From Nonomuraea thailandensis (GTDB taxonomy: Bacteria > Actinomycetota > Actinomycetes > Streptosporangiales > Streptosporangiaceae): a stretch of DNA of 64,000 nucleotides. This document shows, piece by piece, positions 1 through 62,983 of this stretch. The DNA lies in NCBI RefSeq assembly GCF_024172165.1, contig NZ_JAMZEB010000002.1, positions 9,212,501 through 9,276,500 of the forward strand, written 5' to 3'. The notes under the pieces are model-generated. The model made no database searches. It was not told where the DNA came from and was given only the letters and a program-made list of their open reading frames with translations. The translations under genes and the position numbers were made by a program. Within the stretch, counting starts at the first letter, position 1. Each line of letters begins with the position of its first letter.

Positions 1-1238
1 GTCCCACCGGCACCGGTGTCCGCACCCGCCTTGGGGGTCTGCGACCTTCTGGTGGTGCTGCTGGTGGGGGTGACCGTCACCGTGGAGGTGCGGGTCGTGG
101 TGGGGCGGGGGCTCGTGTTCGTGGGGGTGGGACTCGTCGTGGTGGGGCTCGGGCTGGTCGATCCGTTGCCGACCGTGAACGTGTACGCCTTGAGACCGGT
201 GGTCGGGGCGGTGCACCTGAGCACGGGGCTGGTCGAGCTGGTGCCGAAGGCGAGGTCGCCGGCGGTCAGCGACACGGTGCCCGTGGTCGTCGGCTTGACC
301 TTGATCGTGATGCTGGGGAGGGTCGTGATGTCCGCGCCCGGCTGGATGGTGGTCGTGAACGAGCCTTCACCGGTCGCGGTGGCGGGGGCTCCGGCGCCGG
401 TCGCCTTGATCGTCGCGAAGAGCTTCGCGCCCGTGGCCGGCCAGGCTGCAGGAGCAACTAGTCCGTCGCCCGTGGTCTGGATGGTGCCGGTCCAGGTGAT
501 CGAGGCGTCGGCGTTGGCCGAGGCGCTGGTGGGGGGCGTCATGACGACCTTGATGTCCACGTCCGCCTCGGACGGGTAGTTCGTGTCGGTGGTGCCGGTG
601 GGGACGTCACAGACGTAGGCGACGACGTCGTCATTGGTGCCACCACCGCCACCCGCCTGAACCGTCATGGAGAGGCCGGTCGCGGGCGTCGCTGACTTGT
701 AGGTGCACTCAGTGACACTCTGCTGACCGCCACTAGGCGTTGCGGTGATCTTAAGACCCTTGGTGGTGTTCGCGGTCCCAGGCGTGATGGTGACCGGACC
801 ACCGGTGGCCGGTGCCGTCACCGTGGCCTCCATGGTGGCAGGCGACGGCGTGTAAGCCGTGCCGCCTGCGGTCATCGTGCCAGTGTGGGTCTTCGTCAGC
901 GCAGCGGGCGTGCCACCTCCGCCGACTGTGAGGCTGCCGTCGATCAGGATCTGAGTATTCGCTGCAAGCGATGACGTCGCCGTGAGGGTCGTAGGCAAGG
1001 TCCACTTGATGGAAGCAGTTCCGCTGGGCGCCACGGTGTCGGGCGCCGTGATCGTGACCTTGACGCCAGTGGCCGCGAAGGAACCACCCGTGCAGTCATA
1101 GGTGACTTCCATCGTCTTGTCCACAGCGGCCTGAGCCGGAGATGACCAAGTAAGGACCGCGCACGCAAAGAAGACCAGCGTGCTCGCAAGCCCCATCGCG
1201 GACGTCTTACGGGCGAGGCGGCGCCCCGCCTGGGACAT
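1..1238 (-). CDS. Secreted Ig-like surface protein, candidate sortase substrate (partial at window edge)
   Basis: The reading frame is open from an ATG at 1238 to the window edge (412 codons, stop outside). A GGAGAAGGA ribosome site lies about 10 nt before the start. The N-terminus has a twin-arginine-free Sec signal (basic start, hydrophobic stretch, cleavage near SPAQA-A). Two tandem extracellular modules follow, each starting with a Tyr-x-Cys stretch (TYDCTGG and AYVCDV) and rich in Thr/Val/Gly, like immunoglobulin-type wall proteins. A Ser/Thr/Pro-rich linker then leads to TPKAGADTG at 12-38. The same TPxxGxDTG pattern occurs in the surface protein at 2188-3570, so this is probably anchored by the neighbouring class F sortase. 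The membrane segment expected after it lies outside the window. Its function in the wall is unknown. Confidence 0.75.
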   Translation of the reverse strand, partial: MSQAGRRLARKTSAMGLASTLVFFACAVLTWSSPAQAAVDKTMEVTYDCTGGSFAATGVKVTITAPDTVAPSGTASIKWTLPTTLTATSSLAANTQILIDGSLTVGGGGTPAALTKTHTGTMTAGGTAYTPSPATMEATVTAPATGGPVTITPGTANTTKGLKITATPSGGQQSVTECTYKSATPATGLSMTVQAGGGGGTNDDVVAYVCDVPTGTTDTNYPSEADVDIKVVMTPPTSASANADASITWTGTIQTTGDGLVAPAAWPATGAKLFATIKATGAGAPATATGEGSFTTTIQPGADITTLPSITIKVKPTTTGTVSLTAGDLAFGTSSTSPVLRCTAPTTGLKAYTFTVGNGSTSPSPTTTSPTPTNTSPRPTTTRTSTVTVTPTSSTTRRSQTPKAGADTGAGG

Positions 1239-1378
1239 AAGCACGGGTCCTTCTCCGTTTCAAAGCCAGCTCAACAGTCGTGCCAGAATTCCAGCCGTTG
1301 GTCACGGTTAGGTTGAGATCCTACGAACTGTCCCTGTCAACTTCCCGTAAACCGCCAAATCCGCCCCAACTTTCCCCC

Positions 1379-2188
1379 TCAGCCCTTCTTCTTCGACAAC
1401 GTTGCGTACACAACAATGTTGTCCGTGTAGTGGTGAGTCGCCTTGTTATAGACCCCACCGCAAGTGATGAGCCTGAGCTGGGAGTTGCTGGTGTTGCCAT
1501 ACACCCGCTTGGTCGGGAACGAGTTCTTGCTCGCCTGCTCGATCCCGCTGACCGTGAACCGGGTGACCTTCCCGTCCGACCGATACACGTAGATCTGGTC
1601 ACCCTTGGCCAGCTCCCGCAGCCGATCGAAGACCGCGGCCCCCGACCGGGTGCTCACGTGGCCGTTGATGACGGCCGGGCCGGTCTCCCCGGGCACGGGT
1701 GAGCCCTTGTACCAGCCCGTCTGGTTGGGCTTGCTCAGGGGCGGCGTGCCGAGCACGCCCTTCTTGTTGACCGTGACCGAGCCGATCGGCGAGTTCACCT
1801 TGATCTTGGGGATCTTGATGCGGATCGGCCTGGGCGCGGTCTTGCCGACCTTGGGCTTGGCCTTGGGGATCGCCGGCACGACGGGAACGGCCGCCAGCGG
1901 GGGCGGGGCGTCCAGGCGGGCCGGGGTCAGGGGGACGTTCTTGCCGCCCGGACCGACCGTCGGCGGCAGGATGAACGCGCCCGCGTTCGACATCTCGACC
2001 GTGGACGGCGCGCCCTGGGGCGCAGCGAGCGGCACTCCCGAGCCCGAGCCGTCGTCCACCGGGGGCGCCAGCGAGAGCAGGCTCACCATGACCAGGCCGA
2101 TGCCGCCGAGCGAGCCGGCGATGAGCAGCCCGGGCAACGCCCGGTGCATCGGCGACCTCTGCTGCTCGGCCATCTTCTCCTCGGCCAT
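1379..2188 (-). CDS. Class F sortase
   Basis: A 269-residue membrane-anchored transpeptidase. One N-terminal membrane segment (about 18-40) is followed by a Pro/Ala-rich extracellular linker and a sortase barrel (about 120-265). The catalytic His is in VINGHVST (His177) and the Cys in RLITCGG (Cys243), the pattern of actinobacterial class F sortases. The basic residue that normally completes the triad could not be placed with confidence. The ATG at 2188 overlaps the TGA of the upstream substrate gene by one base (TGATG), so the pair is translationally coupled. A GTG at 2191 is an alternative start. Known sortases cleave a C-terminal sorting motif and join the protein to cell wall. Here the likely clients are the two flanking secreted proteins. 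Confidence 0.88.
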   Translation of the reverse strand: MAEEKMAEQQRSPMHRALPGLLIAGSLGGIGLVMVSLLSLAPPVDDGSGSGVPLAAPQGAPSTVEMSNAGAFILPPTVGPGGKNVPLTPARLDAPPPLAAVPVVPAIPKAKPKVGKTAPRPIRIKIPKIKVNSPIGSVTVNKKGVLGTPPLSKPNQTGWYKGSPVPGETGPAVINGHVSTRSGAAVFDRLRELAKGDQIYVYRSDGKVTRFTVSGIEQASKNSFPTKRVYGNTSNSQLRLITCGGVYNKATHHYTDNIVVYATLSKKKG

Positions 2189-3570
2189 CACTGCGCTCCT
2201 CCCGCGTGCGCGGCCTTGCGGCGGCGAAGCAGCAGCCCGCCGCCTGCGGTGCTCATCACCAACGCCATGCCACTGGCCATGAGGCCGAACGGGGGCCTCT
2301 CCTCATCGGGGGCGACGCCGGTGTCCACGCCGCCGCTCGGGGTGTTGGCCACCTGGGCGCGGTAGTACTTGGTCGCGGTGGGGCCGGTGCTCTTCGGAGT
2401 GACCGTTGCGGTCGCGGTGGCGGTGCCGGACGGCGTGACCACCTGGACGAAGTCACCGCCGATGGTGGCGTGGGAGTCGACGTCGTTGTCGTCCGGGTCC
2501 GGGTCGGGATCGTTGGGGTCGGGGTCGTTCGGATCCGGGTCGTTCGGGTCGTCTGTGGGCGGGTCCGTTGGGTCGTCCGTCGGTGTCTGCGTGCCGGTGC
2601 CCGTGGGCGAACTGCCAGGAACGACCACGTCGATGGCGCCCGGGCTCCCGAGCATGGTGCAGGTCGCCTTGTCATACTCCGGCGGCTCGGGGATGTCACC
2701 AGTGATCACCTGGAAGGCGTCCAGGTAGGCGACCTTGCCCTCGGTGTTGACGATCTGGATGGTGTGCGGCCCATAGGACCGCTGTGGCGACGTCCAGAGA
2801 ACCTCTTGGCTCTTGGTGCCCGTCATGTCGTTGCCGCTGGTGTCCTTACCTGGCTCGACAAACTCGGGAGTAGCTGGCTCGCCGTCGATCAACACCTGGA
2901 TTTTGCTGAGGTTCTGCTCACGCCGGCCGATGTAGGCGACCTTCGTGCCTATGAACTCGAACGAGGCCTTCGCGTGCAGTCCGTCGGTCTTCTGAATGTC
3001 GCTGAGGTAGTCGCTGTACGTCGGCGCCGTGTACACCTGGTTCCACGTGCCTTCGTACTGGATCCTGGGGTCGTTACCGTTGATCTTCACGTCACCTTCG
3101 GCAGGCGTGAACTTGAGGTTCAGCCCGCCCGGCCTGAAGCGGATCGTCCCCGCCCGGTCGAGCGCCGCACCGTCGGACAGCCCTTCGGGAAGCTCCAGAT
3201 AATCCCCAGGGACAAGCTGCTGCTGGGTCTTGCCACCCCGCGGCTTGAGCTGGCCGTTCCAGGCGCCGCTGATGTCCACGACACCTTCGAGATGCAGTGA
3301 CGACCCTGCGGGGAAGAAGCCCGGCGAGCCGAAGCGCTGCAAGTCGTCGGTGTAGGAGATGTCCCAGCGGACGTCCATGCGCCCCGCCTGGACCTGGGGC
3401 GTCATCCGCGCTTCCAGCTCCACGCCGCTGCCCGCCACACCACCCGTGCAGCGATAATTGATCACGAGCGAGGTTGCAGCCTGGCTGGGAATCGAGGACG
3501 TCACGACTAAACCAGCAGTTGCCGCCATGCCCAAGGATGCGGCGATGAACGCCTTGTGCCACCGACTCAC
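2188..3570 (-). CDS. Secreted wall-anchored surface protein with acidic D-P repeat
   Basis: About 460 residues. The GTG at 3570 is preferred because GGAG sits 5 nt before it; an in-frame ATG at 3591 is possible but has no such site. A Sec signal peptide (cleavage near PSQAA) leads to a domain starting INYRCTGG that resembles the N-terminal domain of the protein at 1-1238. A middle region follows, then an Asp/Pro/Asn-rich repeat (DNA about 2475-2580). The C-terminus carries TPSGGVDTG (2317-2343), a hydrophobic segment and an RRRK tail, the layout of a sortase sorting signal although it is not LPxTG. The gene is translationally coupled to the sortase downstream. No enzymatic domain was recognised; a wall-linked ligand-binding or structural role is an inference. 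Confidence 0.82.
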   Translation of the reverse strand: MSRWHKAFIAASLGMAATAGLVVTSSIPSQAATSLVINYRCTGGVAGSGVELEARMTPQVQAGRMDVRWDISYTDDLQRFGSPGFFPAGSSLHLEGVVDISGAWNGQLKPRGGKTQQQLVPGDYLELPEGLSDGAALDRAGTIRFRPGGLNLKFTPAEGDVKINGNDPRIQYEGTWNQVYTAPTYSDYLSDIQKTDGLHAKASFEFIGTKVAYIGRREQNLSKIQVLIDGEPATPEFVEPGKDTSGNDMTGTKSQEVLWTSPQRSYGPHTIQIVNTEGKVAYLDAFQVITGDIPEPPEYDKATCTMLGSPGAIDVVVPGSSPTGTGTQTPTDDPTDPPTDDPNDPDPNDPDPNDPDPDPDDNDVDSHATIGGDFVQVVTPSGTATATATVTPKSTGPTATKYYRAQVANTPSGGVDTGVAPDEERPPFGLMASGMALVMSTAGGGLLLRRRKAAHAGGAQ

Positions 3571-3712
3571 GGAGACTCCGATCCCCCACATACCAGACCG
3601 AGGGTAGATCCTAGAGTCGAAACACCCGCAACACATGCCGAAACCCGCTACTTCCGGCACTTGTGATGAACCCGTGTCCCCAGCCGCCCACCACGGGTAT
3701 ACCTTCCGGTAA

Positions 3713-3727
3713 CAGAATCCTATTCTG
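3713..3727. promoter_or_regulatory. Perfect palindrome upstream of acyl-CoA dehydrogenase gene
   Basis: CAGAAT-CCT-ATTCTG, six-base arms and a three-base spacer, ends 16 bases before the acyl-CoA dehydrogenase start codon. Size and place fit a repressor operator (for example TetR type). The cognate regulator is not evident nearby. Confidence 0.4.
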
Positions 3728-3743
3728 CAAGCGGAGGCGACTG

Positions 3744-4889
3744 ATGCAGCGTGACCTCTTCGACGACGAGCACCTCCTCTTCCAGGAGACCGTGCGCGAC
3801 TTCATGGCCCGCGAGGTCGCCCCGTACCACCCCCAGTGGGAGAAGGACGGGATCGTCCCGCGCGAGGCCTGGAAGAAGGCCGGTGAGCTGGGCATGTTCG
3901 GCTTCTCGGTGCCCGAGGAGTACGGCGGCGCGGGCGTCAAGGACTTCCGCTTCAACGCCGTGATCGTCGAGGAGATCATGCGGAACGGCGCCAGCGGCCT
4001 CGGCTTCTCGCTGCACAACGACGTCATGGCCCCGTACGTGGTGGACCTCACCGACGACGAGCAGAAGCAGCGCTGGCTGCCCGGCTTCGCGTCCGGCGAG
4101 CTGATCACCGCGATCGCGATGAGCGAGCCCGGCGCCGGAAGCGACCTGCAGGGCATCAGGACCACCGCGATCCGGGAGGGCGACCACTACGTCCTCAACG
4201 GCCAGAAGACGTTCATCACGAACGGCATCAACGCCGACCTCGTGGTCGTCGTGGCCAAGACGGACCCGGAGGCGGGCGCCAGGGGCACCACGCTGGTCGT
4301 GGTGGAGCGCGGCATGGAGGGCTTCGCCCGCGGGCGCAACCTGGACAAGGTCGGCATGAAGGCGCAGGACACGGCCGAGCTGTTCTTCGACAACGTACGC
4401 GTGCCCGTCGCCAACCGCCTCGGCTCCAAGGACGGCGAGGGCTTCTTCCAGCTCATGCACAACCTGCCGCAGGAGCGCCTGTCGATCGCCGTGGCGGCGG
4501 TGGCCGCGGCCGAGGCGGTGCTGGAGCAGACCGTCGAGTACTGCAAGACCCGCCAGGCCTTCGGCCGCAACATCGGCTCGTTCCAGAACACCCGCTTCGT
4601 CCTGGCGGAGCTGGCCACCGAGACCGACATCGCCCGCCACTACGTCGACAAGTGCATCCTCGCCCTCAACGCCGGCGAGCTCACCGCCGTGGACGCCGCC
4701 AAGGCCAAGTGGTGGACGACCGAGCTGCAGACCAAGGTGATCGACCGCTGCCTGCAGCTCCACGGCGGGTACGGCTACATGACCGAGTACCCCGTGGCCA
4801 AGGCGTGGCTCGACAGCCGCGTCCAGACGATCTACGGCGGCACCACCGAGATCATGAAGGAGATCATCGGCAGGTCCTTCGGCTTCTGA
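3744..4889 (+). CDS. Acyl-CoA dehydrogenase, long-chain (LCAD-like) type
   Basis: A 381-residue FAD flavoenzyme that makes the trans-2 double bond in acyl-CoA, the first step of beta-oxidation. The start at 3744 has GGAGG upstream; an earlier in-frame start at 3663 has none. N-terminal helical domain, central beta domain with MSEPGAGSDLQG (about residues 130-141) and C-terminal helical domain are all present. The C-terminus has IYGGTTEI where short- and medium-chain enzymes have a catalytic Glu (YEGT). This Gly is typical of long-chain and isovaleryl enzymes, which use a Glu on another helix, here probably in LPQERL. The wider C-terminal sequence also reads like mammalian LCAD. The gene stands alone, with an operator-like palindrome upstream. 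Confidence 0.9.
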   Translation: MQRDLFDDEHLLFQETVRDFMAREVAPYHPQWEKDGIVPREAWKKAGELGMFGFSVPEEYGGAGVKDFRFNAVIVEEIMRNGASGLGFSLHNDVMAPYVVDLTDDEQKQRWLPGFASGELITAIAMSEPGAGSDLQGIRTTAIREGDHYVLNGQKTFITNGINADLVVVVAKTDPEAGARGTTLVVVERGMEGFARGRNLDKVGMKAQDTAELFFDNVRVPVANRLGSKDGEGFFQLMHNLPQERLSIAVAAVAAAEAVLEQTVEYCKTRQAFGRNIGSFQNTRFVLAELATETDIARHYVDKCILALNAGELTAVDAAKAKWWTTELQTKVIDRCLQLHGGYGYMTEYPVAKAWLDSRVQTIYGGTTEIMKEIIGRSFGF

Positions 4890-19632: not shown

Positions 19633-19797
19633 TTTCGCGTTCCCGGGGACGAAAGACCCTAGGGGAAAGTGGTTCCTTGACCGTCTCCGGTCAGAGGCTC
19701 AGCCTGGCGGCAGGCACCCTCGGCCCTCCCACGAGCAGGTATGACGTTCTGCGCGCGCCTGCCCTCCTCCGGTGTGAGGGTCAGTAAGGAGCACGTC

Positions 19798-21351
19798 ATG
19801 GAGCCCACATCCGGCTTAACCAGGCGCGGCTTCCTCACCGGCGTAGGCGCCGGAGCCGCCGCACTGACGCTCACCCCCGCAGAGGCACTCGCCAAGGTCG
19901 TCACGGCACGCGCGGGAGGCCTGGCGACCTCCCCCGACCGGTTCGGACGGGTCTTCAGCCTGGCCCCGTTCGCCGACTTCAACGCCCCCAGCCTGAGGTC
20001 CGCGCTGATGGAGATGGGCCGCCCCGGCGGCCTGGCCGACGCCAGGGACCCGCTGCAGGAGGGCCCGATCCGGTTGATCACCAACCCCGAGCTCAGCCCG
20101 AACAACCTCGACAACGCCACCCACACGGCGGGCACGACGTTCTTCGGCCAGTTCATCGACCACGACATGACCTTCGACCGGGACTCTCCCCTGGGCGTGC
20201 CGACCGCGCCCGAGCAGTCGCCCAACCTCAGGACGCCCGGCTTCGACCTCGACACCGTCTACGCCCGCGGCCCCGCCTCCGATCCGCAGTTCTACGACCC
20301 CGCGGACACCGCCAAGCTCCGTGTGGAGAGCGGCGGCCGGTTCGAGGACGTGCCCCGCAGGGCCAACCGTACGGCGATCATCCCCGATCCCCGCAACGAC
20401 GAGAACCTCATGATCAGCGGCATGCACGCGGCGTTCCTGCGCTTCCACAACCGGGTCGTGGACCACCTGCGGGCGGCGGGCCAGCAGGGCAACGTGTTCG
20501 AGGCCGCCAGGCAGCAGGTCAGGTGGCACTACCAGTGGCTGGTGCTGCGGGAGTTCCTGCCGCAGATCATCGGCCAGAGCGTGGTCGACGACATCCTCAG
20601 GAACGGGCGGCGCTTCTACCGGCCGGTGGCAGGGCAGCAGTTCATCCCCGTCGAGTTCCAGGGCGCGGCCTACCGGTTCGGGCACAGCATGGTGCGGCCG
20701 TCGTACCGGGCCAACCTCGCGGGCAACCCGGACGGCACGCCGTTCTTCGGCTTCATCTTCGACCCCGCGGGTCAGGGCCAGGCCGACCCGGTGGACCTGC
20801 GCGGCGGGGCCAGGGCGGCCAGGCGGTTCATCGGCTGGCAGACGTTCTTCGACTTCGGCGACGGCGAGGTGCGGCCGAACAAGCGCATCGACACCAAGCT
20901 GTCCACGCCGCTGTTCAACCTGCCGCTGGCCGCGATCCCGTCCGCGGACCCGCCGACCTCGCTGGCGCAGCGCAACCTGCTGCGGCACATCACCTGGTCG
21001 CTGCCGTCCGGGCAGAACATCGCACGGGCCATCGGCGTGCAGTCCCTGGAGGCGCAGCACTTCCCCGAGCTGCAGTCGATCGGGCACGGGCTGCCCTCCA
21101 GCACCCCGCTCTGGTACTACGTGCTCAAGGAGGCCGAGGTCCTGGCCGGCGGCCTCAGGCTGGCCGGCGTGGGCGCGCGGATCGTGGGCGAGGTCTTCGT
21201 CGGGCTGCTGCAGCTCGACCCGTCCTCGTTCCTGAGCACGAACCCGTCCTGGCGGCCCACGCTGCCGCGGCGCTCGGGCCCGGCGGGCGACTTCAGGATG
21301 GTGGACCTGCTCACCTTCGCCCGGGTCGATCCGGCGAGCCGAGGCCAGTGA
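19798..21351 (+). CDS. Tat-exported animal-type haem peroxidase
   Basis: A 517-residue haem peroxidase of the peroxidase-cyclooxygenase superfamily. A TRRGFLTG Tat signal (about 7-14) implies folded export. The distal His is in FIDHD (His122), the conserved middle block RTAIIPDPRNDEN follows, and the proximal His is in AYRFGHSMVRP (His296). This YRFGH form is that of peroxidases rather than dioxygenases, unlike the second haem enzyme at 59819. AAGGAG lies seven bases before the ATG. It probably oxidises halide or aromatic compounds outside the cell. Its last 41 bases overlap the end of the convergent regulator gene. Confidence 0.9.
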   Translation: MEPTSGLTRRGFLTGVGAGAAALTLTPAEALAKVVTARAGGLATSPDRFGRVFSLAPFADFNAPSLRSALMEMGRPGGLADARDPLQEGPIRLITNPELSPNNLDNATHTAGTTFFGQFIDHDMTFDRDSPLGVPTAPEQSPNLRTPGFDLDTVYARGPASDPQFYDPADTAKLRVESGGRFEDVPRRANRTAIIPDPRNDENLMISGMHAAFLRFHNRVVDHLRAAGQQGNVFEAARQQVRWHYQWLVLREFLPQIIGQSVVDDILRNGRRFYRPVAGQQFIPVEFQGAAYRFGHSMVRPSYRANLAGNPDGTPFFGFIFDPAGQGQADPVDLRGGARAARRFIGWQTFFDFGDGEVRPNKRIDTKLSTPLFNLPLAAIPSADPPTSLAQRNLLRHITWSLPSGQNIARAIGVQSLEAQHFPELQSIGHGLPSSTPLWYYVLKEAEVLAGGLRLAGVGARIVGEVFVGLLQLDPSSFLSTNPSWRPTLPRRSGPAGDFRMVDLLTFARVDPASRGQ

Positions 21352-59607: not shown

Positions 59608-59826
59608 ATGAACTCCGGCAAGTGGATCCGGCAGAGTCACCGCTGGCTGTCCATCGCCTTCACCACGACCGTGCTCGTCGCCATCGTCGCCGTCTCGCAG
59701 GAGAATCCCGCCATGTGGGTGTTCTACCTGCCGTTGTTCCCGCTCGTGCTGCAGTTTCTGACCGGGCTGTACCTGTTCGTGCTGCCGTACACCGCCAAGG
59801 GGCGCGGCGGACGGCGGGTCACCTGA
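59608..59826 (+). CDS. Small two-pass membrane protein (72 aa)
   Basis: A 72-residue protein with helices at about 14-32 and 37-58 and a basic end. GGAGG lies eight bases before the ATG. It follows the VOC gene by 13 bases and is likely cotranscribed. Its stop overlaps the end of the haem enzyme gene on the other strand by eight bases. Function unknown. Confidence 0.75.
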   Translation: MNSGKWIRQSHRWLSIAFTTTVLVAIVAVSQENPAMWVFYLPLFPLVLQFLTGLYLFVLPYTAKGRGGRRVT

Positions 59827-61570
59827 GCGCCCGCCACGGCGCGAACGCGTGCGGGACGCCGCTGAGAGCGGGGGCGAGCTCGGGGTGGTGGCGCAGCAGG
59901 ACCTCGGTCATGCCGGTCCTGTCGATCCAGTCCAGCCCCTCGGGGCTGTAGACCCCGGGCGTGTACAGGTCGGTGAAGAACGGGTCGCTCTTGAGCCGGC
60001 GGGACGCCATGAGCACGAACACCCGGAACGCGGTGTCGGACATCGCGAACCCGGGCGGCTTGGGCTCGGCGAGCAGCCCCACGGTGACGTCGACCCGTTC
60101 GGGGTCGCCCTCGTAGACCTCCTCGAGCTCCCGTGACCACCCGGGGTCGCCGGTCATCCGCGCGAACTCGGTCACCGGCGCCTTGCGCAGCATGCGGCGG
60201 AAGTCGTTGTAACGGGGCACCCCGCGTTCGCGGTCGCGCAGGATGTCGAGGGTGCCCACGTCGATGCGCTCGCCGCTGACGCGCACCAGGTCGCGCAGGG
60301 CGTCGGGATGGTTGTGCAGGCTCAGCGCCCCGGGGTGCATGACGCCGAAGGAGTAGAGCCAGTCGGACATGCCGTGCCTGTCGACGGCGGCGCGGGTGTG
60401 CTGCCCCTGGATCGGGAGCAGCTCCTCGGTGGTGATCAGGCTGCCGTCGCGGTGGGAGCGGACCGGGTAGTCGTCGCGGATCAGCGGATGGAACCGGTAG
60501 GAGGCGACGAACTCCTCCGTCATCGAGTACGGCGCGGCGTGGTGCTCCATGGGCGAGCCGAGGATGCCGGAGATCATCTCGCCCCGCCCCACGCGGCCGT
60601 GACGGCGGCGGAAGCCGGGCCCCAGCAGCCCTGCCCAGTTGGTGTTCATGCCCAGGCTCACGGCCCGGTTGTCGAGGATGCCGGGCGTCCACTCCACGGT
60701 GTGGATCTTGGCCATGACGGCGACGTTGACCAGGCGGGCGGTCTGGAAGAGCCGCTCGTCGTCCCACGACGGGTACGCCTCGCGCAGCATGCCGCAGATG
60801 GCGTTGTGCTCCTTGACGAACAGGGTGTGCATCAGCGCCAGGCCGACCCAGTAGTTGTCGTTGAACCCGGTCAGGTCGATCCCGGCCAGCCCCGGGGCGG
60901 TCTCATCCGGCAGCCGCCCGCCCTGGAGGGTCATCGTGCCGTCCTCGCCGGTGCGCAGCGAGCGGCAGCGGCTTTCGGAGCTGCCGTAGAGCTGCGAGCC
61001 GTCCCACCAGTGGGTCACCGTGTTCGCGTAGGTGGGCGGGGTGCCGGGCACGGTGCGCGGCGTGGGGTCGGGGCGGCTGCGGCGTACGCGCATCACCCGC
61101 TCGTACCACTGGTCGCCGTCGGCGATCGGCACCTCGATGGGGTCGGCCAGGCGGTTGTCGCCGTGGCTGAACCAGTCGTGGTTCTGGAACTGGATCCAGG
61201 CGGCGGCCAGCATGTTTAGCGAAGTGGCGGGGATGAGCTCGCGCCTGGTCAGCAGCCGGTTGCTCACCTCGCGGGGGCTGGGCGACAGCAGCCTTTCCCG
61301 CGGGCCCGGATGGGTGAGGCCGAGGGGCGCGTTGCGGTCGAAGCGGGTGCCGGCCCGGCCCATGTCCGCGTCGGCGGGGTCGTAGCCGGAGCCGTCGTAG
61401 CTGCGGTGGCGCGGCCTTGGCCGGGACGGGGTGGGGGCCCGCTCGCCGCCGACCGGGCGGGTGTCGTGCAGGTTGTGCCGGCGCAGGGCGGCCCGCATCC
61501 TGGCCAGCGCCAGGAGTTGCAGCAGGAACGGTCGTTCGTACCACTCTTTGACGATCTTCGTCCAGAACAT
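59819..61570 (-). CDS. Alpha-dioxygenase-like haem enzyme
   Basis: A 583-residue member of the peroxidase-cyclooxygenase superfamily. It reads like plant alpha-dioxygenases: SYDGSGYDPADADMGRAGTR at the start, WIQFQNHDW with distal His131, AKIHTVEWTP, and YRFHPLI with Tyr358-x-x-His361. In cyclooxygenase and alpha-dioxygenase the Tyr three residues before the proximal His makes the radical that attacks the fatty acid; it is present here, unlike in the peroxidase at 19798. Plant enzymes turn fatty acids into 2-hydroperoxides. No signal peptide is seen. The partner P450 is divergent across 84 bases. Confidence 0.85.
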   Translation of the reverse strand: MFWTKIVKEWYERPFLLQLLALARMRAALRRHNLHDTRPVGGERAPTPSRPRPRHRSYDGSGYDPADADMGRAGTRFDRNAPLGLTHPGPRERLLSPSPREVSNRLLTRRELIPATSLNMLAAAWIQFQNHDWFSHGDNRLADPIEVPIADGDQWYERVMRVRRSRPDPTPRTVPGTPPTYANTVTHWWDGSQLYGSSESRCRSLRTGEDGTMTLQGGRLPDETAPGLAGIDLTGFNDNYWVGLALMHTLFVKEHNAICGMLREAYPSWDDERLFQTARLVNVAVMAKIHTVEWTPGILDNRAVSLGMNTNWAGLLGPGFRRRHGRVGRGEMISGILGSPMEHHAAPYSMTEEFVASYRFHPLIRDDYPVRSHRDGSLITTEELLPIQGQHTRAAVDRHGMSDWLYSFGVMHPGALSLHNHPDALRDLVRVSGERIDVGTLDILRDRERGVPRYNDFRRMLRKAPVTEFARMTGDPGWSRELEEVYEGDPERVDVTVGLLAEPKPPGFAMSDTAFRVFVLMASRRLKSDPFFTDLYTPGVYSPEGLDWIDRTGMTEVLLRHHPELAPALSGVPHAFAPWRALR

Positions 61571-61654
61571 GGCCGGTCACCGCCTTTCAGCTCTTCACTT
61601 ATAGTAATCATTTAACTACTACTTGTGGTATCCCCAAGGTGTGGAGGGCTTGTG
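61571..61654. promoter_or_regulatory. AT-rich divergent promoter region
   Basis: The 84-base gap between the alpha-dioxygenase-like and P450 genes contains a stretch much richer in AT than its surroundings (about 61596-61626). TATAGT on the plus strand and TACTAT on the minus strand could both be -10 boxes, so the genes may be fired from overlapping promoters. The stretch also has partial two-fold symmetry that could bind a shared regulator. Confidence 0.45.
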
Positions 61655-62983
61655 ATGGGACGACAGACCTCCGAGACGCCGCGCGCGACCGGGCTGGAGA
61701 GCCTGGCGTTCGCCTTGCTCTACTCCCTGCCGGAGTTCGCCCGCGGCATCGTCGTCCCCCGGCCCTCGATGACCCGGCTGCTCGCCCGGCTCGACACGCA
61801 GGCCGCGGCGCAGCGCTTCTGCCTGCGGCTGCGCGTGCGCTACGGCGGCCGCTCGCTCTACGTGCGGGGCCCGCGCGGCAAGGTGCTGCTGCTCCTGTCG
61901 CAGGGCGACGTCGAACGGGTGCTGGCCGGCAGCGACTCGGTCTTCTCCCTGCGCACGGAGGAGAAGTGGCACGGGTTCTCGCCCTTCCAGCCGGACAGCC
62001 TGCTGCTGTCCCAGGGGGAGCAGCGTGGCGACCGGCGCCGGTTCAACGAGGCCGTGCTGGGCGGGGCGGCGCACGTGCTGGCCCGGCGGATCGACCAGGT
62101 GATGACGGAGGAGCTCGACGGGATCCTCGGCCGCCGCCAGGCCCCGGTGGACTGGGAGCGGCTGCGCGGCGGCTACGACCGGGCGACGCTGAGGCTGGTG
62201 CTCGGCGACGCGGCCCGCGACGACGTACAGGTCCTGTCGACCCTGAACGCGCTGCGCCACCAGGGCAACTGGCTGGGTCTGGGGCCCCGGCGCCGCGGCC
62301 GGGCGCGCAGGTTGCGGCTGGCCATGACGGCGGGGATCGAGCGGCACCTGGAGGCGCCGGCCGGCGACAGCCTGGCGGGCCTGGCGGCGGCCGCGCCCCA
62401 GAGCGCTCGCACCTGTCCCGCGGGGCAGGTGCCGCACTGGCTGCTGGCGTTGACGGGGCTCGGCAGTACGGTGATCGGCCCCACCCTGGCACTCCTGGCC
62501 GGCCATCCCGAGCACTGCGAAAGGGCGCGGGCCGAGGCGTGCGCGACCGGCGGCGAGCGGCGGCACCTGCGCGCCTGCCTGCACGAGTCCCTGCGCCTGT
62601 GGCCGCTGGTGGCCACGCTGCCCCGGGTCGTCACCGAGCCCACCGGCTGGCACGGAGCCACGCTCCCCGCCGGGACCGACCTCATGATCCCGGTCGCCGT
62701 GCACAACCGGAACCCGCAGATCGGCTACGCCGACGCCTTCACCCCGCAAGCGTGGCTGGACGGGCGGGCCGCGGCCGACTGGTGGATCATCCCGTTCTCG
62801 GCCGGGCCCGGCCGCTGCCCGGGAAGCGATCTCGGAGGCACGGTCGGCACCGCGGTGCTGGCCGCGCTGCTGCGCCAGTACGACTTCTTCCCGGACGGCC
62901 CGGCCCTCGGCCCGGACCGCCCGCTGCCCAAGACCCTGGACCCCTTCTCCCTGCGCCTGAACGTCGTTCCGCGCATCTTGTGA
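61655..62983 (+). CDS. Atypical cytochrome P450
   Basis: A 442-residue P450. The ExxR is in HESLRLWP (Glu311-Arg314) and the haem loop is FSAGPGRCPGSDLG with Cys388. The I-helix position that normally reads AGx(D/E)T is ALTGLG (265-270), so both acid and alcohol are missing. P450s that lack this pair, such as CYP74 and CYP152, use fatty acid hydroperoxides instead of O2. GGAGGG lies six bases before the ATG at 61655. It is divergent from the alpha-dioxygenase-like gene, which fits a hydroperoxide supply. The reaction is an inference. Confidence 0.83.
   Translation: MGRQTSETPRATGLESLAFALLYSLPEFARGIVVPRPSMTRLLARLDTQAAAQRFCLRLRVRYGGRSLYVRGPRGKVLLLLSQGDVERVLAGSDSVFSLRTEEKWHGFSPFQPDSLLLSQGEQRGDRRRFNEAVLGGAAHVLARRIDQVMTEELDGILGRRQAPVDWERLRGGYDRATLRLVLGDAARDDVQVLSTLNALRHQGNWLGLGPRRRGRARRLRLAMTAGIERHLEAPAGDSLAGLAAAAPQSARTCPAGQVPHWLLALTGLGSTVIGPTLALLAGHPEHCERARAEACATGGERRHLRACLHESLRLWPLVATLPRVVTEPTGWHGATLPAGTDLMIPVAVHNRNPQIGYADAFTPQAWLDGRAAADWWIIPFSAGPGRCPGSDLGGTVGTAVLAALLRQYDFFPDGPALGPDRPLPKTLDPFSLRLNVVPRIL

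What the first reader, a model, noticed from the sequence alone, without database searches (positions are those of the whole stretch)
59819..62983. Divergent alpha-dioxygenase-like enzyme and P450: possible bacterial oxylipin module
Seen: an alpha-dioxygenase-like protein with distal His131 and the Tyr358-x-x-His361 motif lies 84 bases from a divergent P450. Known: plant alpha-dioxygenases make 2-hydroperoxy fatty acids, and fungal Ppo proteins fuse a dioxygenase to a hydroperoxide-isomerising P450. Inference: these two genes are the split bacterial counterpart and make a fatty-acid oxylipin.
Basis: partly seen in the sequence, partly recalled or inferred. Interest (0 to 1): 0.78.

Follow-up and report, generated by a model that had tools for sequence, protein, structure and literature searches.

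The report
Fatty-acid dioxygenase paired with P450
A soil actinobacterium carries, back to back, a plant-type enzyme that adds oxygen to fatty acids and a P450 enzyme, and relatives in many actinobacteria keep the same two genes together, often with enzymes that could finish shortening the fatty acid by one carbon.

Summary
Confirmed. A full-length alpha-dioxygenase (alpha-DOX) gene (59819-61570, minus) lies 84 bases from a divergent P450 gene (61655-62983, plus); every alpha-DOX active-site residue tested is present. Strand and order vary, so this is not just inherited synteny. Context points to fatty-acid alpha-oxidation more than to a signalling oxylipin: 19 of 47 loci carry a GlcD-type oxidase and a benzoylformate-decarboxylase-type enzyme, and three Solirubrobacterales fuse the DOX to a fatty-acyl-reductase-like domain. 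Some other alpha-DOXs have a catalase-like partner, never with the P450 here. I infer that the P450 consumes the 2-hydroperoxide; this is not shown. Its O2-activating acid-Thr pair is lost in the window but kept in many relatives, so an ordinary monooxygenase stays open. In the window's genus the module is reduced and sometimes broken. New variant of a known kind.

The parts
59819..61570 (-). alpha-dioxygenase (PF03098), 583 aa, haem enzyme expected to make 2-hydroperoxy fatty acids
61178..61180 (-). codon of distal His131 (H in 47 of 47 of the P450-linked clade; H in 52 of 64 rows outside it)
   Evidence: equivalence to rice His157 is recalled numbering placed on the alignment
60701..60703 (-). 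codon of His290, carboxylate-side residue of alpha-DOX (rice His311, recalled)
   Evidence: 110 of 110 rows
60497..60499 (-). codon of catalytic Tyr358
   Evidence: 109 of 110 rows
60488..60490 (-). codon of proximal His361
   Evidence: 110 of 110 rows
59996..59998 (-). codon of Arg525, carboxylate-binding Arg of alpha-DOX (rice Arg559, recalled)
   Evidence: 110 of 110 rows
61571..61654 (.). 84-base divergent intergenic region, presumed shared promoter region (no promoter scan was run)
61655..62983 (+). cytochrome P450, 442 aa from ATG (GTG 61625 also possible), partner of the alpha-DOX
62453..62458 (+). I-helix codons Thr267-Gly268 where ordinary P450s have the acid-Thr (D/E-T) pair
62816..62818 (+). 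haem-thiolate Cys388 in FSAGPGRCPG
   Evidence: 37 of 37 rows of A2

Best explanation
The two genes are the core of an actinobacterial fatty-acid alpha-oxidation module. Step 1 (shown only by homology and active-site residues): the alpha-DOX oxygenates a free fatty acid at C2 to a 2-hydroperoxide. Step 2 (inferred): the P450 takes that hydroperoxide as its oxidant or substrate, without O2 and redox partner, and turns it into a 2-hydroxy or 2-oxo acid or a rearranged product, instead of letting it decarboxylate spontaneously. Step 3 (inferred from neighbours in relatives, absent beside the window pair): a GlcD-type FAD oxidase makes the 2-oxo acid and a benzoylformate-decarboxylase-type enzyme releases CO2 to give the Cn-1 aldehyde. 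In Nonomuraea the module is mostly reduced to the divergent DOX-P450 pair. I hold about 0.85 that the pair is a functional unit in the wider clade, and about 0.45 that the P450 step consumes the hydroperoxide.
For: Linkage: DOX tree of 111 rows, one clade (SH-aLRT 99) of 47, 44 with the P450 in the fetched flank, plus L167, whose P450 shows in the wider stretch L211; L106 is cut by the contig end; L114 is a true absence within 8 kb: 45 of 46. Arrangements among the 44: 15 same strand with a gap of 200 bases or less, 5 divergent with 200 or less, 22 same strand at 201-4000, 2 opposite strands at 201-4000. A mycobacterial partner P450 finds the window P450 as its best match in the window's genome (E 3.5e-51 against 4e-34 for the next). 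Pathway: GlcD-type and ThDP genes in 19 of 47 (20 with L211); the two ThDP enzymes scanned pass the benzoylformate decarboxylase cut-off (682 and 622 bits against 493); annotated mdlC - FAD-linked oxidase - P450 - alpha/beta hydrolase - peroxidase on a 39-kb Streptomyces plasmid; fatty-acyl-reductase-like domain (NAD_binding_4) fused to the DOX in L109, L111 and L113, P450 next to it. Hydroperoxide logic: catalase-like protein fused to or near the DOX in 19 of 111 rows, 0 of them with the P450, with fusions at either end of the DOX. In a scan with one ferredoxin pattern over 45 loci (44 DOX-P450 loci, one of them Moorena, and the window's) 12 stretches matched; by eye two are ferredoxins, both about 9 kb from the P450.
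Against: The P450 step is untested. The acid-Thr pair is present in 18 of 53 P450 rows, including most Mycobacteriales, Nocardioidaceae and Solirubrobacterales partners. 21 of 64 P450 rows are not seen next to a DOX (two of them one gene, many with only about 1.5 kb of flank). In an even sample of 396 genomes of the phylum I found the P450 near the DOX in 3 of 19 DOX-bearing genomes (some DOX hits there are contig fragments, and only four P450 candidates per genome were scored). GlcD and ThDP genes are not beside the window pair; that genome has only 46% and 39% homologues elsewhere. The P450 evolves fast in this genus (dN/dS 0.50-0.69 against 0.20-0.43 for the DOX, simple counting), its frame is broken in G015, and both genes are broken in G039 (sequencing error not excluded).
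Confidence: 0.48

Rival explanations
1. The P450 is an ordinary O2/NAD(P)H monooxygenase that hydroxylates the DOX product or the shortened acid, fed by ferredoxins encoded elsewhere.
For: Acid-Thr pair present in 18 of 53 rows, including most DOX-linked P450s of Mycobacteriales, Nocardioidaceae and Solirubrobacterales; nearest solved P450 by profile and by Foldseek is CYP184A1, also solved with oleic acid (24% identity); two of 45 loci carry a ferredoxin gene about 9 kb away.
Against: Pair lost in the window clade and in most Streptomyces partners while linkage stays; no ferredoxin close by in the 45 loci scanned with one pattern.
Confidence: 0.28
2. One reading: a split counterpart of fungal DOX-P450 fusions that makes a signalling oxylipin.
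For: Same combination of a COX-superfamily dioxygenase and a P450, consistently linked; fungal fusions and their self-sufficient P450s are described in PMC13049297 (passages read).
Against: DOX is plant-type alpha-DOX by best match; catabolic-type neighbours in 19 of 47 loci and an acyl-CoA oxidase gene next to the pair in Mycobacterium sp. ST-F2.
Confidence: 0.12
3. In Nonomuraea the pair is a decaying remnant of the larger alpha-oxidation cluster with little present function.
For: GlcD and ThDP missing beside the window pair; P450 broken in G015, both genes broken in G039, P450 without a DOX in G040, fast P450 evolution.
Against: Both window genes intact; DOX dN/dS 0.20-0.43; the pair persists in different genomic surroundings in G024 and G045; N. 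soli (G029) keeps all four genes in a row.
Confidence: 0.1
4. The haem enzyme is only a peroxidase.
For: It belongs to the peroxidase-cyclooxygenase superfamily and keeps the distal His.
Against: Full alpha-DOX residue set including catalytic Tyr and carboxylate Arg; best matches are alpha-DOX; characterised cyanobacterial alpha-DOXs make fatty aldehydes (PMC8720084, passages read).
Confidence: 0.02

Closest known systems
Plant and cyanobacterial fatty-acid alpha-dioxygenases
   Same: Full-length match (E 4e-98 to 1e-102 to the solved plant enzymes), all active-site residues tested here; Actinobacteria were already seen in an alpha-DOX tree (PMC8720084, passages)
   Different: Here the gene comes with a dedicated P450, and in relatives with GlcD-type oxidase and benzoylformate-decarboxylase-type genes; the main text of PMC8720084 does not mention P450 (0 occurrences)
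Fungal DOX-CYP fusions (LDS, AOS, EAS; Ppo) and the COX - PGIS/TXS cascade
   Same: COX-superfamily oxygenase followed by a P450, some of those P450s with non-canonical I-helix residues (PMC13049297, passages)
   Different: Separate genes, alpha-DOX-type oxygenase, a bacterial P450 family whose closest solved relative found is CYP184A1 (24% identity), catabolic-type neighbours
Catalase-related hydroperoxidases fused to lipoxygenase or haem dioxygenase (coral AOS-LOX and HPL-LOX; cyanobacterial catalase-haem dioxygenase)
   Same: A catalase-like domain fused or next to a fatty-acid dioxygenase, as in the window genome's second alpha-DOX (the fusions are described in PMC5617202, start of abstract in the listing, and PMC11719350, passage)
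   Different: That is the paralogue, not the window pair, and its dioxygenase is an alpha-DOX
Mandelate-type pathway (2-hydroxyacid dehydrogenase plus benzoylformate decarboxylase)
   Same: ThDP enzyme passes the NCBIfam benzoylformate decarboxylase cut-off and sits beside a GlcD-type FAD oxidase
   Different: Sits with alpha-DOX, P450 and an alpha/beta hydrolase, which suggests fatty 2-hydroxy acids rather than mandelate

Membership tests
alpha-dioxygenase | full-length peroxidase-cyclooxygenase domain with best matches among alpha-DOX | tested here: met
alpha-dioxygenase | distal His, catalytic Tyr, proximal His (rice 157/379/382; numbers recalled, placed on the alignment) | tested here: met
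   His131, Tyr358, His361
alpha-dioxygenase | carboxylate-side residues (rice His311, Arg559, Thr316; recalled) | tested here: met
   His290, Arg525, Thr295
alpha-dioxygenase | makes 2-hydroperoxy fatty acid | not testable with these tools
   needs enzyme assay
fungal DOX-CYP (Ppo/LDS type) | dioxygenase and P450 in one polypeptide | tested here: not met
   two genes, divergent, 84 bases apart
fungal DOX-CYP (Ppo/LDS type) | dioxygenase of the linoleate-DOX branch | tested here: inconclusive
   plant alpha-DOX is the best match in PDB; no fungal sequence was compared
fungal DOX-CYP (Ppo/LDS type) | P450 isomerises the hydroperoxide without redox partner | not testable with these tools
   needs assay
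cytochrome P450 | haem Cys motif and ExxR | tested here: met
   Cys 37 of 37; E 28 and D 9 of 37; R 37 of 37; AlphaFold model mean pLDDT 92.6, P450 fold
conventional P450 monooxygenase | I-helix acid-Thr pair | tested here: not met
   window has Thr-Gly there; met by 18 of 53 family rows
CYP152 fatty-acid peroxygenase | Arg-Pro in place of the acid-Thr pair (recalled) | tested here: not met
   0 of 53 rows
CYP74 clan | CYP74 I-helix and Cys-loop signatures | not tested
   no CYP74 sequence compared

The most novel reading that the evidence does not exclude
Bacteria have their own COX-like cascade: an alpha-DOX that hands its 2-hydroperoxide to a dedicated hydroperoxide-consuming haem partner, a P450 in one actinobacterial clade and a catalase-like protein in others. 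The cassette, once seen on a small plasmid, runs a CoA-independent alpha-oxidation that shortens free fatty acids by one carbon.
Probability: 0.35. Interest if true: 0.75.

Novelty: new variant of a known kind. Interest (0 to 1): 0.52.

Why it matters
Alpha-DOX is studied as a plant stress enzyme and as a biocatalyst for fatty aldehydes; what it does in bacteria is open. A P450 that stays beside it through at least four gene arrangements gives a direct, testable partner for the 2-hydroperoxide, and the neighbouring oxidase and decarboxylase give a candidate complete alpha-oxidation route. A catalase-like partner in the place of the P450 in other lineages offers a natural comparison of two chemistries on the same hydroperoxide.

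Tried and rejected
First impression that the whole P450 family lacks the I-helix Thr (18 rows) was wrong: with 53 rows, 18 keep D-T.

Idea that DOX-free members of the P450 family always sit beside a true catalase: a large catalase flanks it in 2 of 28 loci looked at, many of them with short flanks and two of them one gene; dropped as a rule. A 301-aa protein after a Qingshengfaniella DOX looked like a broken P450 by eye; the profile score is -0.5 bits; dropped. Fold comparison by VIA-align gives many P450s within a few Z units, so it names no clear nearest relative; CYP74, CYP152 and prostacyclin synthase were not in the rows shown, which excludes nothing.

The papers seen do not describe an alpha-DOX/P450 pair in bacteria (searches; open-licence PMC only; passages seen in PMC8720084, PMC9305512, PMC13049297 and PMC11719350; nothing beyond search listings for any other paper).

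Rows dropped before the tree count: L069 (broken), L083, L165, L186, L178, L085, L102, L107, L155 (same genes as other rows), further rows identical in sequence, and DOX pieces under about 1300 bases or with stops. Of the 64 rows outside the clade only 22 have at least 2 kb of flank on both sides (40 on at least one side), so the absence of the P450 outside is less well tested than its presence inside. In the P450 tree L068, L109 and duplicates were left out, and L069 and L163 had fallen out as too short. Both trees are quick searches, and the program warned of long branches that meet.
Full report
Observation. The first is an An_peroxidase protein (PF03098, E 6e-104), the second a P450 (PF00067, E 2e-21). 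In the PDB the first matches plant alpha-dioxygenases over almost its whole length (E 4e-98 to 1e-102), ahead of a lactoperoxidase-like chain (1.7e-26) and COX (1e-17). On the alignment Tyr358, His361, His290, Thr295 and Arg525 fall on the residues that I recall as rice Tyr379, His382, His311, Thr316 and Arg559. In 110 aligned bacterial rows they are invariant or nearly so (His 110, Thr 108, Tyr 109, His 110, Arg 110 of 110), while the distal His is not; PMC8720084 also reports the distal His as only partly conserved (passage).

Where it lies. The genome is 13.77 Mb. The genome has a second alpha-DOX, in a 971-aa protein whose N-terminal part resembles a solved catalase-like protein (3e4w, 320 aa, E 7e-13) and, weakly, catalases.

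Is the pair conserved? In the window's relatives (148 genomes) the P450 lies beside the DOX in G000, G004, G015, G024, G039 and G045, and within about 2-3.3 kb in G029, G056 and G135. The 80 best named loci of the GTDB collection (a capped list) add Streptomyces, Rhizohabitans, Longispora, Nocardioides, Marmoricola, Aeromicrobium, Mycobacterium, Antrihabitans and Solirubrobacterales. On a tree of 111 alpha-DOX rows (quick search, LG+G4) one clade of 47 rows (SH-aLRT 99) contains 44 rows with the P450. Of the other three, L167 has it in the wider stretch L211, L106 ends at the contig edge, and L114 lacks it within 8 kb on either side. Outside, 1 of 64 rows has it: a cyanobacterial Moorena locus whose P450 scores 191 bits with the family profile; 42 of those 64 have under 2 kb of flank on at least one side. 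Arrangements differ: divergent in the window and four other Nonomuraea loci; tandem DOX-P450 in most Mycobacteriales, Nocardioidaceae and Solirubrobacterales loci; ThDP-GlcD-P450-hydrolase-DOX in Streptomyces; DOX-ThDP-GlcD-P450 in N. soli; mixed strands in Rhizohabitans, G056 and Longispora. The P450 tree (quick search with long-branch warnings) broadly mirrors the DOX tree, with a partner mismatch for L112 and L115; 21 of its 64 rows are not seen next to a DOX. A mycobacterial partner P450 picks the window P450 as best match in the window's genome.

Unbiased frequency. In 396 genomes drawn evenly from the phylum, 19 have an alpha-DOX (E 1e-80 or better) and 12 a P450 of the family (E 1e-45 or better, only four candidates scored per genome); 4 have both (hypergeometric p 0.0015, or 0.010 without the window's genome), 3 of them within 2 kb of each other. 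So the pair marks one alpha-DOX clade, not all alpha-DOXs.

What the neighbours say. 19 of 47 clade members also carry both a GlcD-type FAD oxidase (FAD_binding_4 plus FAD-oxidase_C; below the glcD equivalog cut-off) and a ThDP enzyme (20 with L211). The two ThDP enzymes scanned are above the NCBIfam cut-off for benzoylformate decarboxylase, and one matches solved benzoylformate decarboxylases best. A Streptomyces plasmid of 39 kb shows the full order with deposited annotation: mdlC, FAD-linked oxidase, P450, alpha/beta hydrolase, peroxidase family protein; that hydrolase passes the cut-offs of three alpha/beta-hydrolase or lipase Pfam models by a small margin, its Streptomyces eurocidicus counterpart stays below. 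In Mycobacterium sp. ST-F2 the gene after the P450 is an acyl-CoA oxidase. In three Solirubrobacterales (L109, L111 = Paraconexibacter antarcticus, L113) the alpha-DOX is fused behind a fatty-acyl-reductase-like domain (NAD_binding_4, E 1e-44, 3e-46, 1e-47) with the P450 immediately downstream. Long N-terminal extensions in three other rows (L077, L114, L145) have no second Pfam domain. Together these fit a route free fatty acid, 2-hydroperoxide, 2-hydroxy acid, 2-oxo acid, Cn-1 aldehyde. The route is inference. PMC9305512 (passages) states that alpha-DOX hydroperoxides go to (R)-2-hydroxy acids or decarboxylate spontaneously to aldehydes.

What the P450 does. It keeps the haem Cys (37 of 37) and ExxR (E 28, D 9; R 37 of 37). 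In the window the acid-Thr pair of the I helix is Thr-Gly; across 53 rows (five of them duplicates, four not DOX-linked) 18 have D-T. The AlphaFold model is confident (mean pLDDT 92.6); the nearest solved P450 by Foldseek and by profile is CYP184A1 of Streptomyces avermitilis, also solved with oleic acid (24% identity). One ferredoxin pattern over 45 loci gave 12 matches, of which two look like ferredoxins, both about 9 kb from the P450. In other alpha-DOXs a catalase-like protein is fused or near: 19 of 111 rows, 10 of them fused at the N-terminus, one with a C-terminal extension that matches the catalase-like domain (L175/L210), eight separate at up to 6 kb, the far ones weak (79-202 bits at 2.4-6 kb); a Rhizobium phaseoli plasmid protein outside that set is also an N-terminal fusion. 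None of these 19 rows has the P450. The simplest reading is that each lineage supplies its alpha-DOX with a haem partner for the 2-hydroperoxide; 44 of 64 outside rows show neither partner in the stretch held. The P450 could also be a monooxygenase of the product; sequence alone does not decide.

State of the module here. Beside the window pair there is no GlcD or ThDP gene; the genome holds only 46% and 39% homologues elsewhere. DOX dN/dS against four congeners is 0.20-0.43, P450 against three is 0.50-0.69 (simple counting, high-GC genes). The P450 frame is broken in G015 and both genes are broken in G039 (sequencing error not excluded). The P450 persists without a DOX beside it in G040. So within Nonomuraea the module is being trimmed in several lineages, although both window genes are intact and N. 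soli keeps four genes in a row.

Verdict. I score interest 0.52: a consistent, untested two-haem module with a clear assay, but built of known enzyme families.

Noticed in passing
   Followed up: partly
L109:3115-5991, L111:6828-9743, L113:515-3445: Solirubrobacterales alpha-DOX fused behind a NAD_binding_4 (fatty-acyl-reductase-like) domain, with the P450 immediately downstream.
   Followed up: partly
L018-L021, L076, L144, L170, L176, L177, L184 (Arg), L074 (Lys), L174 (Asn): Bacterial alpha-DOX relatives in which the distal His is replaced by Arg, Lys or Asn while the catalytic Tyr and proximal His stay (12 of 64 rows outside the P450-linked clade).
   Followed up: no
L219 (NZ_CP108251.1, 39-kb Streptomyces plasmid): The full five-gene set sits on a small circular plasmid, so the module can perhaps move.
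   Followed up: no
window 19741-21351 (+): A second, more distant An_peroxidase protein (536 aa, E 1e-21) lies in the same window.
   Followed up: no
L110:4075-5730 (Streptomyces morookaense): DOX in which the catalytic Tyr aligns to His and Thr295 to Met; may be inactive or misassembled.
   Followed up: no
L215, L216: DOX-free members of the P450 family beside a large catalase gene in Rhodococcus koreensis and Roseinatronobacter.
   Followed up: partly
L137:3742-4887: A divergent member of the P450 family sits 341 bases upstream of an alpha-DOX in a Moorena (cyanobacterium) contig.
   Followed up: partly
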